This document shows, one piece after another, positions 55,287-64,000 of a stretch of DNA of 64,000 nt (positions are counted from its first letter, which is position 1; each line of letters opens with the position of its first letter). Source of the DNA: Ehretia macrophylla (Eukaryota; Streptophyta; Magnoliopsida; Boraginales; Ehretiaceae). The position numbers and the translations under genes were made by a program. The notes under the pieces are model-generated. The model did no database searches. It was given only the letters and a program-made list of their open reading frames with translations, and was not told the origin of the DNA. The stretch lies in the NCBI GenBank assembly GCA_037974665.1, contig CM075768.1:4800501-4864500 (forward strand), written 5' to 3'.

Positions 55287-57317
55287 TAGATAGAGGAAAT
55301 AGGGAATCAGTTTTATCCCGTTCCGCCTCTAGTATCTCTAGGATCAGTATTTCTGACCCTACTCTAGGTTTTGTTGACCTTCCTTCAACAAGTAGATTCC
55401 AGACTCAATCTGTTCCAATAGGAATTAAGATTGAAAAATAGACTACTCGTCCAGTCTATCCAGAATTTGAACCAATAGATACATCATCTGTTGACTTCAA
55501 CCCTTTAGCCTCAGACTTTGGTGTCAATGTATTATCTGAAGTCTTTGAAAGAGATGTTCAAGGTTTGAAAGAAGAATTTCTTTCAGATGAGAACAAACAT
55601 ATTAGAGAATGGTATTTTGAAAACCATAACAATGAACAGTTAGCAGATTTAAAAAGCCAGTGGCTTCAGTATTTGCAACTTGTTAGGTTAAACGTACCAT
55701 TTTTCATGTGGTTTAAGCACATAAATAAACCAATGAACATTAATGTTCTTACTGCAAGAACAAGAAAATGGAATTTACCTAATTCCACAATAGTTATTGA
55801 TGCGGAGCACCCTCCGTTTCAACATACACAGATTCCTACTAAAGAAGGAACTGTAGATCTCAAACCAGTCGTTCTTTCAGAACAACCAGAACTTAAAGAC
55901 ATAGCCCAACAAAATAATTGGACTAATCTTTCAGTTGTTACATTACAAAAACAGATTCAGAATATCGAAGATATTCTTGAAAAATAGAAAGATACAATCC
56001 CAGTTAAACCTGTTGAATCAAAACAGAAGTCAACTGAACAGACCACTGTTTCATTGACAAAACCATTTGATTCACTTAAGTTAACCAGTACAAAGGTTAA
56101 ACCAGAATCTAAGATCAAGGTTTTACATTTTATGATATCAAAATACATTCCAAATTTGGAATCTACAGAAGAGAAGAATACCAAACTTCTCCAGGAACTG
56201 ATTTCCAGATCTAAGAAATCAGAACCTTCATCCAGCCAATTGGCTCTTCAAACAATAAAACAGTCAAACAGTAATTCTGATTATGAGTCTTCATCTTCAC
56301 AGAATTCCGGGAGAGATAAAGCTATCCACATTAATAGAATTTATTTTCCAAACACAAGGAATTTCTATCCCAGACCTTTGCCTCCAGATCTTCACATTGA
56401 AGAAATTCATTCCCAGAGATCTTATTCTGGATCCCAAATCTATGAATGGAACATAGATGGAATGTCAGAATATCAGATTCTCAATGTTACCAAACAGATG
56501 ATCATTATCGGTAACATTTACAAACAATCTGTTTCTGAGAGAGCAGCAACCAGAAATATCATTCTTGGCTTCAATAGTTAGCTCAAAGGATGGTGGGATG
56601 ACCACCTCAATGATGCAACCAAAGAAGGCATTCTTAACATGGTGAAAACCAATGAGAATGGTGAACCTGTTCTTAATCAGCAAGGTCAGACAGAGTCATG
56701 TGCTCTATCAGCCTTAGTCTTCGATATCACCTACCATTTCATAGGTGATCCCACAGTTTATCAGGAACGAACATCTGAAATCCTTCAGAACCTCAGATGC
56801 TGTACACTCCAAGACTTTCGATGGTATAAGGATGTCTTTCTTAGTAAATTATACCAAAGATCTGACAACAACGCCAGTTATTGGAAAGAAATATTCTTTT
56901 GTGGTCTTCCAAAGTTGTTTGCTCAACAAGTGAGAGAATCCCTTTCACAAGATTATCCAGGTTTAGACTATGATCTTATGACATATGGTGACATCATTTC
57001 CCATATTAATAAGACTGCTTTGAAGATTTGCACTGATCTTCGTTTCAAAGCACAGTTAAAGAAACAGTCTAACAGAAAAGAATTAGGAAATTGGTGTGAA
57101 CAGTATGGTATGGAAAGAATTAAACCACCCCATACTCAGAAAACACATAAATCCAGAATTTCCTCCATAAAATACAAGAATCACTTCAAATCCATTGGAC
57201 AGAAGTACAAGCAGAAGTATGGCAACAAACCATACAACCATAAGAAGAAACATTACCAGAAGTTTCCACGAAGAAATTGGAAACCAAAACATAATAAAGA
57301 ATAGAAAGCCACAGGAT

Positions 57318-57358
57318 GCTTCAAATGTGGTAAAACAGGACACTTTGCAAGAGATTGC
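57318..57358 (+). other. Capsid zinc knuckle
   Basis: CFKCGKTGHFARDC, the CX2CX4HX4C motif of caulimovirid coat proteins, intact. It follows a lysine-rich stretch (57170-57300). Confidence 0.85.
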
Positions 57359-58069
57359 AAAATCAGATCACTAATTCAATCATTAGAATTAGATGAAGCT
57401 ACAAAGAGCAGAATTATCCAGTCCATTGATGATCTTGAATCATCATCCAGCTCTTCTTCAGAATACTCTGATGAAGAAAACATTAATCAGATTGGAACAG
57501 ACAACTACTATTCCAGTAGTTCCTCCAACTCCATTCAGGAATGTGCTTGTCCCAGCAAAGGAGCATGTTTCTACCAGAAAAGATTAAGTGTCCTTACAGA
57601 CTCTAATGGTCTTATGATCGATATGATCTGTAAGATTAATGATCCAGAAGAAAAACAAGCTTATCTTCTTAGGCTTAAAGACATTATGGATCAGAAAGAG
57701 GAAGAAAAATCTCAATCCATACCTATCCAGAATAACATCAAGAATACAAATTATTCTGATGTCCTCAGTTACTTCCAGAAGAGAAAAACCCAACCAGTGG
57801 GAATCTCTGATCTCCAGCATGAGATTAAACTGTTAAAAGCAGAAATTCAGCAACTCAGACAAGAGTATAGGGAAGAGATTTGTGATCTCAGATTAGATCA
57901 TGAACATCTCCAGCAAGATGTCCAACTCTTACAAATAGAATCCCTAGAACGTCAAGAACATCTTTCTCAGAATGATGAACTTGATAAACAGACTCAGATT
58001 GCTATTGGCAAACTGACAGAAGGAGCTAGTACCTCCAAACCCACAGAGGATTACCTCAATCTTCTGAAC

Positions 58070-58177
58070 AGAATCACATATCAGAAATGGTATGTCCAGT
58101 TAACCATCAAGGTTAATGATTTCAAATTTGAAACCATTGCCTTATTAGACTCAGGTGCAGATATGAACTGCATCTAG
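58070..58177 (+). other. Retropepsin active-site region
   Basis: ALLDSGADMNCI with the catalytic aspartate codon at 58148. A stop codon follows at 58175, within the domain. Confidence 0.8.
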
Positions 58178-61708: not shown

Positions 61709-62980
61709 ATTGAGTTTCCCAGTGTTCTCTCCAAAAAACACAGGACAGATGAGTTTCCTAATGTTCTCTAAAAACATTGGACAGATAGGGTTTTGTTCTT
61801 CTAAGTTCCCTTCAAAAACTAAGATGCCACGGTAAGACTTCCCCTCTCTGAAGTCATATGGTTACTGAAGAATTCCATGAAACTTCAGCTAGTCCAGGTC
61901 AAACGGCAACTGGTAAAGACACCTCAAGTCCGTTGATGGGTGTGGCTTTCCCAAAAAGCCAAAGAAGATTTAGAAACTTGGTTATCTTCTAGCCTGTATT
62001 TTATTTTGTATTTTGCTTAGTCAACTTACCTTTAGCCAACTTACCTCTAGTAAACCTATTTCAACAACCTTGTAAGGTCACGGGACTGAGGAGTCTGGGC
62101 GTAAGACTCCGTTGTTACCCATGTGGCGATTTGGTGAGAAATAGTTAGGCTTCGAAGATAGTAAGGCTTCGAAGATAGTAAGACTAAGTACGATGCAGAT
62201 TAGATTATAGGGAAAATAGACTAGTTTATTTATTTTCTTTGTATTTGCGAGAAATACATATCACTCATTGTACTTGTATGTATTTTACCATAAGTCAGTA
62301 TGATCCAGACATGAAGAAGTTTTACAACGTCTTCAGCACAGAACCAGATTCAGACTAAGAGATGAAGAAGAAGATGAATCCAGTCAAGATTCCATCATCA
62401 GACATCATCATCACAAAATGACGAAATTACTTTCGGTCATAGTGAAAGTAATCCCAGTCAAAAAACATTATCATCACATTGAGACAAGAGATCTTTCGGC
62501 CACAGTAAAAGCCAGACATGATTATCAAGTCACGACAAAACAGATTTCGGCCACAGTAAAAGTCGACCACTATTCATGAATAGTAAAAATCACTTTTTAC
62601 TGTTCACCTTTTGAAAAGTTACTTTTGACTTTTCAATTTTCATTTTCACTTTTCTTTTCAGATTCGTTTTCCTATATAAGACAGAGTCTGTCTCATTTAC
62701 AGGATCCGAATTTTTTCTTCATTTTAGGAGGATCCGAATATTTTTGTAGATCCGAATTTTTTTTCATTTCAGCAAGATCCGAATTTTTTCTTCATTTTAG
62801 GATACTCATGTACATACCAATAGTGTAGCACAGTCTTCTTCCATATCTAATAACAAGTAAGAGACTCAGTCTCCTTTTATCTTCATCTTATATGTATTCC
62901 ATTTATTTACTTATCTATTATCTGTGTTTATTCCGCTTTCTGTTATGGCTTTCATTATCTTATCTTCCCTGGGTTGTTTC
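61709..62980 (+). promoter_or_regulatory. Pararetroviral intergenic region with promoter
   Basis: Non-coding. It holds three copies of a TTTCGGCCACAGTAAAAG-like motif (near 62433, 62491, 62545) upstream of a TATA box (TATATAAG, 62673-62680). Downstream are four GATCCGAAT motifs (about 62704-62785). The layout is that of a caulimovirid pregenomic promoter and leader. Activity is inferred only from motifs. Confidence 0.65.
62673..62680 (+). promoter_or_regulatory. TATA box of the pararetroviral promoter
   Basis: CCTATATAAGACAGAGTC resembles the TATA region of known caulimovirid promoters. Transcription would begin about 25-35 bp downstream and cover the primer-binding site. Confidence 0.65.
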
Positions 62981-62994
62981 TGGTATCAGAGCCA
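62981..62994 (+). other. tRNA-iMet primer-binding site
   Basis: TGGTATCAGAGCCA is the canonical plant initiator-methionine tRNA complement used as minus-strand primer site by Caulimoviridae. It conventionally defines the start of the viral genome map. Confidence 0.9.
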
Positions 62995-63180
62995 GAGCAA
63001 CTAGGTTGTTAGTTTTGTCCAACTTACCTGTATCTACAACTTACCTTTAACTACGGAGACAGGGTAGGGAGCGAGTAAGACCCGCGGAAGGGCAATAGAC
63101 TCCAGGAGTCCCTTGAGGTAGTTTCAAAGATAGTAAGTAGGTTCGCAGATAGTAAGGGCAGAACTAGTAACATAGTTGTA

Positions 63181-64000
63181 ATGGCTTCTAGTAGCAGTAA
63201 TGCTTTAGTAAGATCAGATAATAATACTATAGCAAAAACAGAACAGACATGGACAGTAGTAGAGTTAAGTAATTGGAAACCTCCTAAGATGAACATAGAT
63301 GAGATTTATCAGAAAAGTCGTTTTGACTTTAAATCTCTTCTTACTATTAGATGTAAGGAAGAAGTAGTGCCACTGACCAGTGATCAACAGAGCATCAGAC
63401 TTTTCTCACAGAAATCCATAGACAAAGCCATTAGAAACGGCTATAGGTTTCTACATATTGGCCATGTGCAAGTCGCACTTAAGCCTTTAATCAGAGAAGG
63501 ACTAGATACCAGTGTATATCTAGCTCTTAGAGATTGTAGGTTACTCAGATACAATGATTCACTACTAGGATTAGTAGAAACGAGTCTTTGTAATAGACCT
63601 ATTTTCTTTAATTGTTTTCCAGATCATACTATATCGCTTACATGTCCTCATGTCATGAAAGCACTTCAGTTAGATATTAAGACGTATAATTATTATGTTG
63701 ATTGTGGTACACACGCATATGAAGTTATTTATCGTCTTAATTATAAATTAATGACTACAGGATTAAATCCTAGATCTATAACCAAAAAATGTCCTAAAGG
63801 TGAAACTATCCTTTGGAACATGGACAGAAATAGATCAATAGTTAACATACCCAGAACCATTAAGTGGAATGAAATTTCATTTCCAGAAAGGTGGGATATT
63901 GAGAATGCCACTAAACCCATTGTTCAGGATCAGAATGTCCAGAACTCCAAAATAGAACAGATCATCCAGTATGATGATGGTACTGTTTCCATTAAGATAG
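63181..64000 (+). CDS. Caulimovirid movement protein, N-terminal part of ORF1, runs off the window
   Basis: ATG at 63181 opens 273 codons without a stop up to the window end. The sequence matches the 30K-superfamily movement proteins of Caulimoviridae: an LFSQKSIDKAI segment, a HIGHVQVALKPL strand region, LDTSVYLALRDCR and a YYVDCGTHAYEVIYRLNYKL segment. In this family it moves virus between cells through plasmodesmata. In florendoviruses it is the N-terminal part of the ORF1 polyprotein, and here it should connect to the coat-protein part. Unlike 55287-59989 no stop interrupts it. Confidence 0.75.
   Translation, partial: MASSSSNALVRSDNNTIAKTEQTWTVVELSNWKPPKMNIDEIYQKSRFDFKSLLTIRCKEEVVPLTSDQQSIRLFSQKSIDKAIRNGYRFLHIGHVQVALKPLIREGLDTSVYLALRDCRLLRYNDSLLGLVETSLCNRPIFFNCFPDHTISLTCPHVMKALQLDIKTYNYYVDCGTHAYEVIYRLNYKLMTTGLNPRSITKKCPKGETILWNMDRNRSIVNIPRTIKWNEISFPERWDIENATKPIVQDQNVQNSKIEQIIQYDDGTVSIKI

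What the first reader, a model, noticed from the sequence alone, without database searches (positions are those of the whole stretch)
55287..64000. Florendovirus-like endogenous pararetrovirus, permuted or head-to-tail
The left part begins inside the movement/capsid linker and runs through RNase H and ORF2. The promoter, primer site and movement protein then follow on the right in the same orientation. Read as a circle the order is complete, so this is either one genome opened in the linker (at least 8.7 kb) or part of a tandem array. There is no integrase, as expected for caulimovirids.
Basis: partly seen in the sequence, partly recalled or inferred. Interest (0 to 1): 0.85.

Follow-up and report, generated by a model that had tools for sequence, protein, structure and literature searches.

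The report
Fossil plant virus, one permuted copy
A dead copy of a florendovirus-like plant DNA virus sits, opened at an unusual point, inside a TA-repeat of an older mobile element; it is an ordinary kind of viral fossil, but its family carries an apparently undescribed pair of matching RNA hairpins on either side of its promoter.

Summary
Window 55287-64000 is a decayed caulimovirid: coat, zinc knuckle, RT and RNase H in one frame, then orphan ORF2, promoter, Met-tRNA site and movement protein. The host contig beyond the window shows that viral sequence runs only 198 nt further, overlaps the left end by 201 nt (85% identity) and stops at a (TA)n tract. So this is one permuted copy of 1.02 units (unit 8,711 nt), not a tandem array. 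The flanks are halves of one LTR-like repeat; 21 sibling sites have them 24-84 nt apart. The two ends are different viral variants. Florendovirus fits best (two ORFs, primer site at the foot of the leader hairpin, (TA)n site), but no RT tree was possible and 8.71 kb slightly exceeds the published range. Least expected is a second hairpin upstream of the promoter that matches the leader hairpin: 10 of 10 leader-centred loci whose viral DNA reaches that far, this one included, have it. In this sample 7 of 11 other copies end at or near the primer site.

The parts
54629..55286 (+). Left half of a high-copy host LTR-like repeat (its left edge was not sought), ending in the (TA)9 tract 55269-55286 that abuts the virus
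   Evidence: Matches unoccupied sibling copies L084 and L085 at 90% and 89%; 1365 first-look candidates genome-wide, 40 scored; TA tract
55287..64000 (+). Endogenous caulimovirid, window part; it continues 198 nt past the window and ends at a (TA)n tract
55289..59989 (+). ORF1, from the MP-coat linker to the end of RNase H: one frame, 9 premature stops plus the terminal stop
55565..55747 (+). DUF7588 domain
   Evidence: Pfam PF24496, E 1.7e-14; also follows MP in the database relatives P0123 and P0130
56423..56575 (+). DUF7746 domain
   Evidence: Pfam PF24925, E 5.5e-15
56762..57070 (+). Caulimovirus coat protein domain
   Evidence: Pfam PF22909, E 4.4e-15
57314..57361 (+). CCHC zinc knuckle
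   Evidence: Pfam PF00098, E 2.3e-7
58826..59302 (+). Reverse transcriptase, in two pieces split by a stop
   Evidence: Pfam PF00078: first piece E 0.017, below the curated cut-off; second piece 2e-24; best solved relative CaMV RT 8r0s
59501..59890 (+). RNase H
   Evidence: Pfam PF17919 2e-25 and PF17917 2.7e-24
60227..61535 (+). ORF2: 368 codons open (60227-61333), then apparently a shift of frame into a 102-codon tail (61227-61535)
   Evidence: longest shuffled ORF 151 aa in 300 trials; differences to 10 other copies 0.096/0.045/0.192 at codon positions 1/2/3 over 60500-61230; no homolog among 1570 candidates
61523..61708 (+). 26-bp tandem repeat, about 5 units plus one detached; number varies between copies
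   Evidence: 0-6 units in 11 other loci with 1.5 kb or more upstream of hairpin 1
62000..62200 (+). Hairpin 1, upstream of the promoter (3' end of the pregenomic RNA)
   Evidence: Unbranched fold, z -3.12; matches hairpin 2
62402..62562 (+). Three 47-nt repeats upstream of the TATA box
62673..62680 (+). TATA box of the pregenomic RNA promoter
   Evidence: a start site about 30 nt downstream is inferred
62945..63004 (+). 19-codon upstream ORF ending at the foot of hairpin 2
   Evidence: a uORF of 19-20 codons with the same start and nearly the same end in 22 of 32 loci, this one included
62981..62994 (+). Met-tRNA primer binding site
   Evidence: same distance from hairpin 2 in 12 of 13 loci with both hairpins, 2 nt off in one
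62990..63180 (+). Hairpin 2, leader stem-loop ending just before the movement protein ATG
   Evidence: Unbranched fold, z -2.94
63181..64000 (+). Movement protein (start of ORF1), open and running on into the linker outside the window
   Evidence: Pfam PF01107, 1.4e-16; frame open to L009:951

Best explanation
This is a single dead copy of a florendovirus-like caulimovirid, captured by the plant as filler DNA when a break in a (TA)n tract was repaired. Shown: viral DNA slightly longer than one genome (1.02 units) lies between two (TA)n tracts, opened in the linker between movement and coat protein; the host repeat on either side is continuous in sibling copies. Shown: the first and last 200 nt are the same viral segment in two different variants. 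Inferred: the integrated DNA was a recombinant between two co-circulating variants or a mixed concatemer, or a mixed tandem array later shrank by homologous exchange. Inferred for the living virus: transcription from the TATA box at 62673 gave a terminally redundant RNA, Met-tRNA at 62981 primed reverse transcription, and ribosomes reached the movement-coat-polymerase polyprotein by shunting over the leader hairpin.
For: Sequence beyond the window. Empty sibling sites: (21 matches between 39 left-flank and 39 right-flank rows, gap 24-84 nt). Domains. CaMV over Ty3, with in-window gypsy control. Two variants at the ends: 30 of 199 sites differ; at 20 of them both states occur in two or more of 31 other sequences, 3 are (nearly) private to the left end and 7 to the right. 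High copy number: 40-41 scored matches per viral piece, this copy included, out of 346-557 first-look candidates. uORF, primer site and hairpin layout.
Against: Genus rests on layout and not on an RT tree. The unit (8,711 nt) exceeds the 7.2-8.5 kbp of assembled florendoviruses (PMC4241990, section 6). The open part of ORF2 (368 codons) is short for the published 45-58 kDa unless the shifted tail is counted. The 31 comparison sequences were fetched as best matches to the left end, which biases how left and right compare.
Confidence: 0.87

Rival explanations
1. It is part of a head-to-tail tandem array.
For: Within the window alone the gene order could not exclude it; other sites in this genome hold several viral pieces close together.
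Against: Viral sequence ends 198 nt after the window at (TA)n; the next 9.1 kb (L009:899-10000) gives no further blastn match to window 55001-64000.
Confidence: 0.03
2. It belongs to Petuvirus or another caulimovirid group near it and not to Florendovirus.
For: No RT tree was possible. AcV1, reported closest to PVCV, has the same 14-nt primer site and an MP and an RT-RNase H gene (PMC4411674, passages), and a citrus virus close to PVCV has a layout that superficially resembles florendoviruses (PMC4241990, section 6). Petuvirus, Florendovirus and gymnendoviruses share one clade (PMC5766536, section 8).
Against: PVCV is described with one large ORF, and petuviruses with the Met-tRNA site downstream of the leader hairpin; here there are two ORFs and the site is at the foot of the hairpin's rising arm, as in the florendovirus PpersV-sc1 (PMC5902531, passages).
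Confidence: 0.15
3. It is a Ty3/gypsy LTR retrotransposon with a captured movement protein.
For: A 201-nt direct repeat lies at the two ends, and LTR-like DNA flanks it.
Against: The terminal repeat is coding linker read in frame and 15% diverged; the flanks are two halves of one repeat, not two copies. No integrase found; coat domain present; CaMV beats Ty3.
Confidence: 0.01

Closest known systems
Florendovirus (Caulimoviridae), e.g. PpersV-sc1 and Lotus japonicus A virus (PMC4241990, sections 6, 9, 24 and passages; PMC5902531, passages)
   Same: MP-coat-protease-RT-RNase H polyprotein (protease here by motif only), an orphan ORF2, Met-tRNA site at the rising arm of the leader hairpin, uORF before it, (TA)n insertion, high copy number, greater-than-unit inserts
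   Different: Unit 8.71 kb against 7.2-8.5 kbp; long noncoding region with a 26-bp variable repeat and a second, leader-like hairpin upstream of the promoter, neither of which I found described
Petuvirus (PVCV) and the petuvirus-like AcV1 (PMC4411674, passages)
   Same: Movement protein and RT-RNase H; the same 14-nt Met-tRNA site in AcV1
   Different: Single ORF in PVCV; in petuviruses the Met-tRNA site is downstream of the hairpin (PMC5902531, passages)
Grass pararetroviruses with region-specific recombination of noncoding regulatory sequence (PMC5491270, passages)
   Same: Mosaic intergenic region: hairpin 2 of this copy has other nearest relatives than its neighbours
   Different: No defective partner virus was sought or shown here

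Membership tests
Caulimoviridae | 30K-type movement protein | tested here: met
   PF01107, E 1.4e-16; 27 relatives at E<=0.001 among 451 candidates
Caulimoviridae | Caulimovirus coat domain with CCHC knuckle | tested here: met
   PF22909 and PF00098
Caulimoviridae | RT-RNase H nearer to caulimovirids than to Ty3 | tested here: met
   CaMV 8r0s 107.4 vs Ty3 80.3 bits (RT), 71.3 vs 44.9 (RNase H); control; bit scores, not a tree
Caulimoviridae | Aspartic protease | tested here: inconclusive
   A DSGAD motif is visible near 58150, but no Pfam protease hit
Caulimoviridae | No integrase | tested here: met
   None in the 20 overlapping pieces
Caulimoviridae | Met-tRNA primer site | tested here: met
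   62981, 14 nt
Florendovirus | Monophyly in an AP-RT-RH1 tree | not testable with these tools
   No named florendovirus or petuvirus reference sequence could be fetched
Florendovirus | ORF1 encodes MP-CP-AP-RT-RH1 as one polyprotein | tested here: met
   MP frame runs into the linker without a stop (L009:67-951); linker to RNase H is one frame; AP by motif only
Florendovirus | ORF2 of 45-58 kDa in another frame, without known relatives | tested here: inconclusive
   ORF2 present, coding by codon-position pattern, no relatives; open part 368 codons, tail in a shifted frame
Florendovirus | Genome 7.2-8.5 kbp (observed range) | tested here: not met
   Unit 8,711 nt; a reported range, not a defining rule
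Florendovirus | Primer site on the rising arm of the leader hairpin | tested here: met
   criterion from PMC5902531, stated there for one florendovirus
Florendovirus | Insertion at (TA)n (frequent, not required) | tested here: met
   Both junctions
Petuvirus | One polyprotein ORF; primer site downstream of the hairpin | tested here: not met
   Two ORFs; site at the foot of the rising arm

The most novel reading that the evidence does not exclude
The living virus carried two copies of the leader stem-loop, one in the 5' leader and one near the 3' end of the pregenomic RNA, whose doubled arm motifs (AACTTACC and GATAGTAAG) can pair within or between hairpins. The pair would bring the two RNA ends together, for instance for the first strand transfer or for packaging. 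In this genome the match between the modules is confined to them and both show compensating base changes, so the second hairpin would be a selected part that has not been described for caulimovirids.
Probability: 0.2. Interest if true: 0.6.

Novelty: new member of a known kind. Interest (0 to 1): 0.4.

Why it matters
It settles a permuted-versus-tandem question from the assembly itself and fixes both junctions with empty sibling sites, which supports capture of viral DNA at (TA)n breaks. It also shows that the ends of one insert can come from different variants, so their divergence must not be read as an age. The paired hairpins, the variable 26-bp repeat and the right ends of 7 of 11 other copies at or near the primer site give testable leads on how these viruses replicated and how their DNA ends reached the chromosome.

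Tried and rejected
Tandem array: rejected by the sequence beyond the window. LTR element: rejected (see rivals). Relatives in viral contigs and genome contigs: none confirmed. Structure of ORF2 from one sequence: mean pLDDT 33.5, uninformative, no fold search made. ORF2 relatives: none at E<=0.001, none credible in the PDB (best E 0.072). I first read the hairpin match as a whole-length duplication; the inner parts alone do not match above chance (score 11, 239 of 500 shuffles as good), the flanks do not either, and of the two arms the 5' one is weaker (4 of 300 shuffles as good, against 0 of 300 for the 3' arm). So chiefly the doubled arm motifs are shared. RNAalifold on the two hairpins alone kept 16 pairs with 2 double changes, weak support; the larger set did better, although only 8 of 19 hairpin-1 and 23 of 35 hairpin-2 sequences fold as one unbranched hairpin. 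A simple two-part chimera with one breakpoint (note) was rejected: hairpin 2 is the outlier between neighbours that agree. A polypurine tract at the left junction: none seen. Splice sites for ORF2 (donor-like GTAAG at 63133, acceptor-like CAG at 60195) are only consensus matches. The bacterial promoter scan does not apply.
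Full report
What is there. The frame that starts at 55289 has 10 stops up to 59989, the last being the end of the ORF, against 75 and 154 in the other frames; 200 dinucleotide shuffles never had a best frame below 72. Scanned as separate open pieces it carries DUF7588, DUF7746, the caulimovirus coat domain, a CCHC knuckle, reverse transcriptase and RNase H, in that order. A second gene, ORF2, follows at 60227 (368 codons; longest ORF in 300 shuffles 151), with a 102-codon tail in another frame. Then come a 1.6-kb noncoding region with a TATA box at 62673 and the Met-tRNA site at 62981, and the movement protein from 63181. No integrase was found in the 20 overlapping pieces scanned.

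Virus, not retrotransposon. The RT piece scores 107.4 bits with the solved CaMV enzyme and 80.3 with Ty3, the RNase H piece 71.3 and 44.9. The RT of the gypsy element in the same window (36405-36776, minus strand) does the reverse, 110.1 with Ty3 and 71.5 with CaMV. Database relatives exist for RNase H (745 of 759 candidates at E<=0.001) and for the movement protein (27 of 451), some from named plants; two of them, P0123 and P0130, have the movement domain followed by DUF7588.

One permuted copy. Before the genome was reachable, the linkers of P0123 and P0130 (95 and 85 residues between MP end and DUF7588; 93 codons counted here from 55289) suggested that 64000 and 55289 are almost the same point of the circle. 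The host contig confirmed it: the window is C5:4800501-4864500 of a 1.58-Gb genome, and L009 continues the frame into the linker for 198 nt, matching window 55287-55487 over 201 nt at 85%, and then enters a (TA)n tract. The unit is 8,711 nt and the insert about 8,912 nt. The rest of L009 gives no further match to window 55001-64000 by blastn at E<=1e-5.

The target. The left flank (54740-55240) is a high-copy repeat (1365 first-look candidates, 40 scored); among the 39 other rows 7 same-strand pairs lie 5-12 kb apart, as LTRs would. The right flank (L009:946-1140) is the other half of the same repeat: of 39 left-flank and 39 right-flank rows, 21 match as one site with a gap of 24-84 nt. Two such sites read directly show a short TA-rich tract without insert. 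So the virus lies in a (TA)n inside an LTR-like repeat. This agrees with the (TA)n bias and filler-DNA model for florendoviruses (PMC4241990; I saw the abstract, sections 6, 9 and 24, and passages).

Two variants at the ends. The left and right copies of the linker differ at 30 of 199 sites. Against 31 other sequences, 3 differences are private or nearly so to the left and 7 to the right; at the other 20 both states occur in two or more copies (the 31 were fetched as best matches to the left end). The ends were thus already different variants before integration, and their 15% divergence is not an age. A rough decay estimate from the 9 premature stops is about 0.042 substitutions per site; with recalled plant rates of 0.65-1.3e-8 per year that is some 3-7 million years, an inference. 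The noncoding region is mosaic too: in L023, L025 and L027 the segment 62861-62989 (88-95%) and the 5' part of MP (93-97%) are close to this copy but hairpin 2 is not (87%), while L013, L017-L021 and L035 (7 of the 12 paired loci compared) have a close hairpin 2 (92-96%) and a more distant 62861-62989 (84-87%). Region-specific recombination of noncoding sequence is known from grass pararetroviruses (PMC5491270, passages seen).

ORF2 is a real gene. Between this copy and 10 others the differences over 60500-61230 fall 0.096, 0.045 and 0.192 at codon positions 1, 2 and 3, the pattern of a protein under selection; ORF1 and MP pieces show a like pattern (0.062, 0.052, 0.145 in 29 copies; 0.055, 0.038, 0.123 in 40). 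A short noncoding control (61750-62000, 11 copies) was uneven in another way (58, 31 and 17 differences), so the cells are not independent. No relative was found and the fold prediction was uninformative.

Two hairpins. The leader (62990-63180) and a stretch upstream of the promoter (62000-62200) both fold as one unbranched hairpin (59-64 pairs depending on the ends taken), z -2.9 and -3.1. Of 200 random 190-mers in the window 1 was unbranched; of 60 random stretches 2 had a z below -2.9. The two modules align with score 72, against at most 39 in 500 shuffles, at most 32 in 125 control windows and 35 for the reverse complement; the flanks do not align and the 5' arm alone is weaker, and the inner parts do not align. 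What is shared is chiefly a doubled AACTTACC in the rising arm and a doubled GATAGTAAG in the falling arm; the plus strand of the window holds 5 and 4 of these words, 4 and 4 of them here.

How far the pair is kept. In 12 other loci with both modules the match scores 63-90 and the spacing is 905-1131 nt; one of the doubled motifs of hairpin 1 is reduced to a single copy in 4 of them (L013, L017, L018, L021). Most copies in this genome are fragments: of 32 loci centred on hairpin 2 (this one included) 10 have hairpin 1 of 150 nt or more in the same orientation. One search tested whether the other 22 speak against the pair. In those 22 the viral match joined to hairpin 2 begins downstream of 62100, so they are cut short before a full hairpin 1 (two begin inside it); in L052 a hairpin 1 lies nearby in the opposite orientation. 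All 10 whose match reaches past 62000 have it (in L021 with a short duplication in between). Of 12 loci centred on hairpin 1 (this one included), 4 run through to hairpin 2 and 8 end before it. On 35 hairpin-2 and 19 hairpin-1 sequences 93% of pair cells are kept; double changes number 106 cells in 7 pairs and 17 cells in 5 pairs, against at most 45 in 5 and 5 in 3 for slid partners. The structure came from one of these sequences, which by itself favours it on cells kept.

What the leader hairpin is. Hairpin 2 looks like the classical leader stem-loop: a 19-20-codon uORF ends at its foot in 22 of 32 loci, and the primer site lies at the foot of its rising arm, as reported for the florendovirus PpersV-sc1 and unlike petuviruses (PMC5902531, passages seen). 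Hairpin 1 I did not find described, by searches of one open-access library; subscription papers and supplements were not seen.

Ends at the primer site. Of 11 other loci centred on hairpin 1, 7 stop matching at window position 62950-62988, in or up to 31 nt before the primer site (62981-62994); 3 run through and 1 stops earlier. After the stop, 4 of the 7 pass into a (TA)n tract within 11 nt; the other 3 have viral sequence out of order 2 to 92 nt further on. This suggests that the minus-strand discontinuity often supplied the DNA end that was joined; the window's copy, opened in the linker, is then an exception.

Verdict. A new member of a known kind, most likely Florendovirus, with an unusual noncoding region.

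Noticed in passing
L024, L026, L028-L030, L032, L033: Seven of 11 sampled viral copies end in or up to 31 nt before the Met-tRNA primer site, four of them against (TA)n.
   Followed up: partly
L015, L045, L046, L047, L052: In five of 32 leader-centred loci the match joined to hairpin 2 begins at window position 62803-62808, just after the leader repeats; either a preferred break or divergence of those repeats.
   Followed up: no
G000 C7:105772487 and 105778598; C4:50807178 and 50807765: Leader hairpins in opposite orientation close together: inverted viral copies, a possible source of double-stranded RNA.
   Followed up: no
window 61523-61708: 26-bp tandem repeat varying from 0 to 6 units between copies; each unit holds a short inverted repeat TACTC/GAGTA.
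   Followed up: partly
window 54776, 55015, 62494, 62545, 22488: TTTCGGCCA occurs 5 times (0.19 expected), twice in the host LTR-like repeat and twice in the viral promoter repeats; the two regions do not otherwise align above chance.
   Followed up: partly
window 7688-9593 (+), 14875-17354 (-), 36405-36779 (-), 44853-45731 (-): Copia-type, Ty3/gypsy and gag-bearing retrotransposon remains: a TE-rich neighbourhood.
   Followed up: no
window 21774-22133 (-): SAWADEE domain, the only clear host-gene piece among the 20 (of 30 listed) ORFs outside the virus that I scanned.
   Followed up: no
P0041, P0071: RNase H proteins 71% and 68% identical to the viral piece are labelled as from a Chitinophagaceae MAG and Bradyrhizobium sp. 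TM233, probably plant DNA in bacterial records; the genome-contig scan confirmed no such contig.
   Followed up: partly
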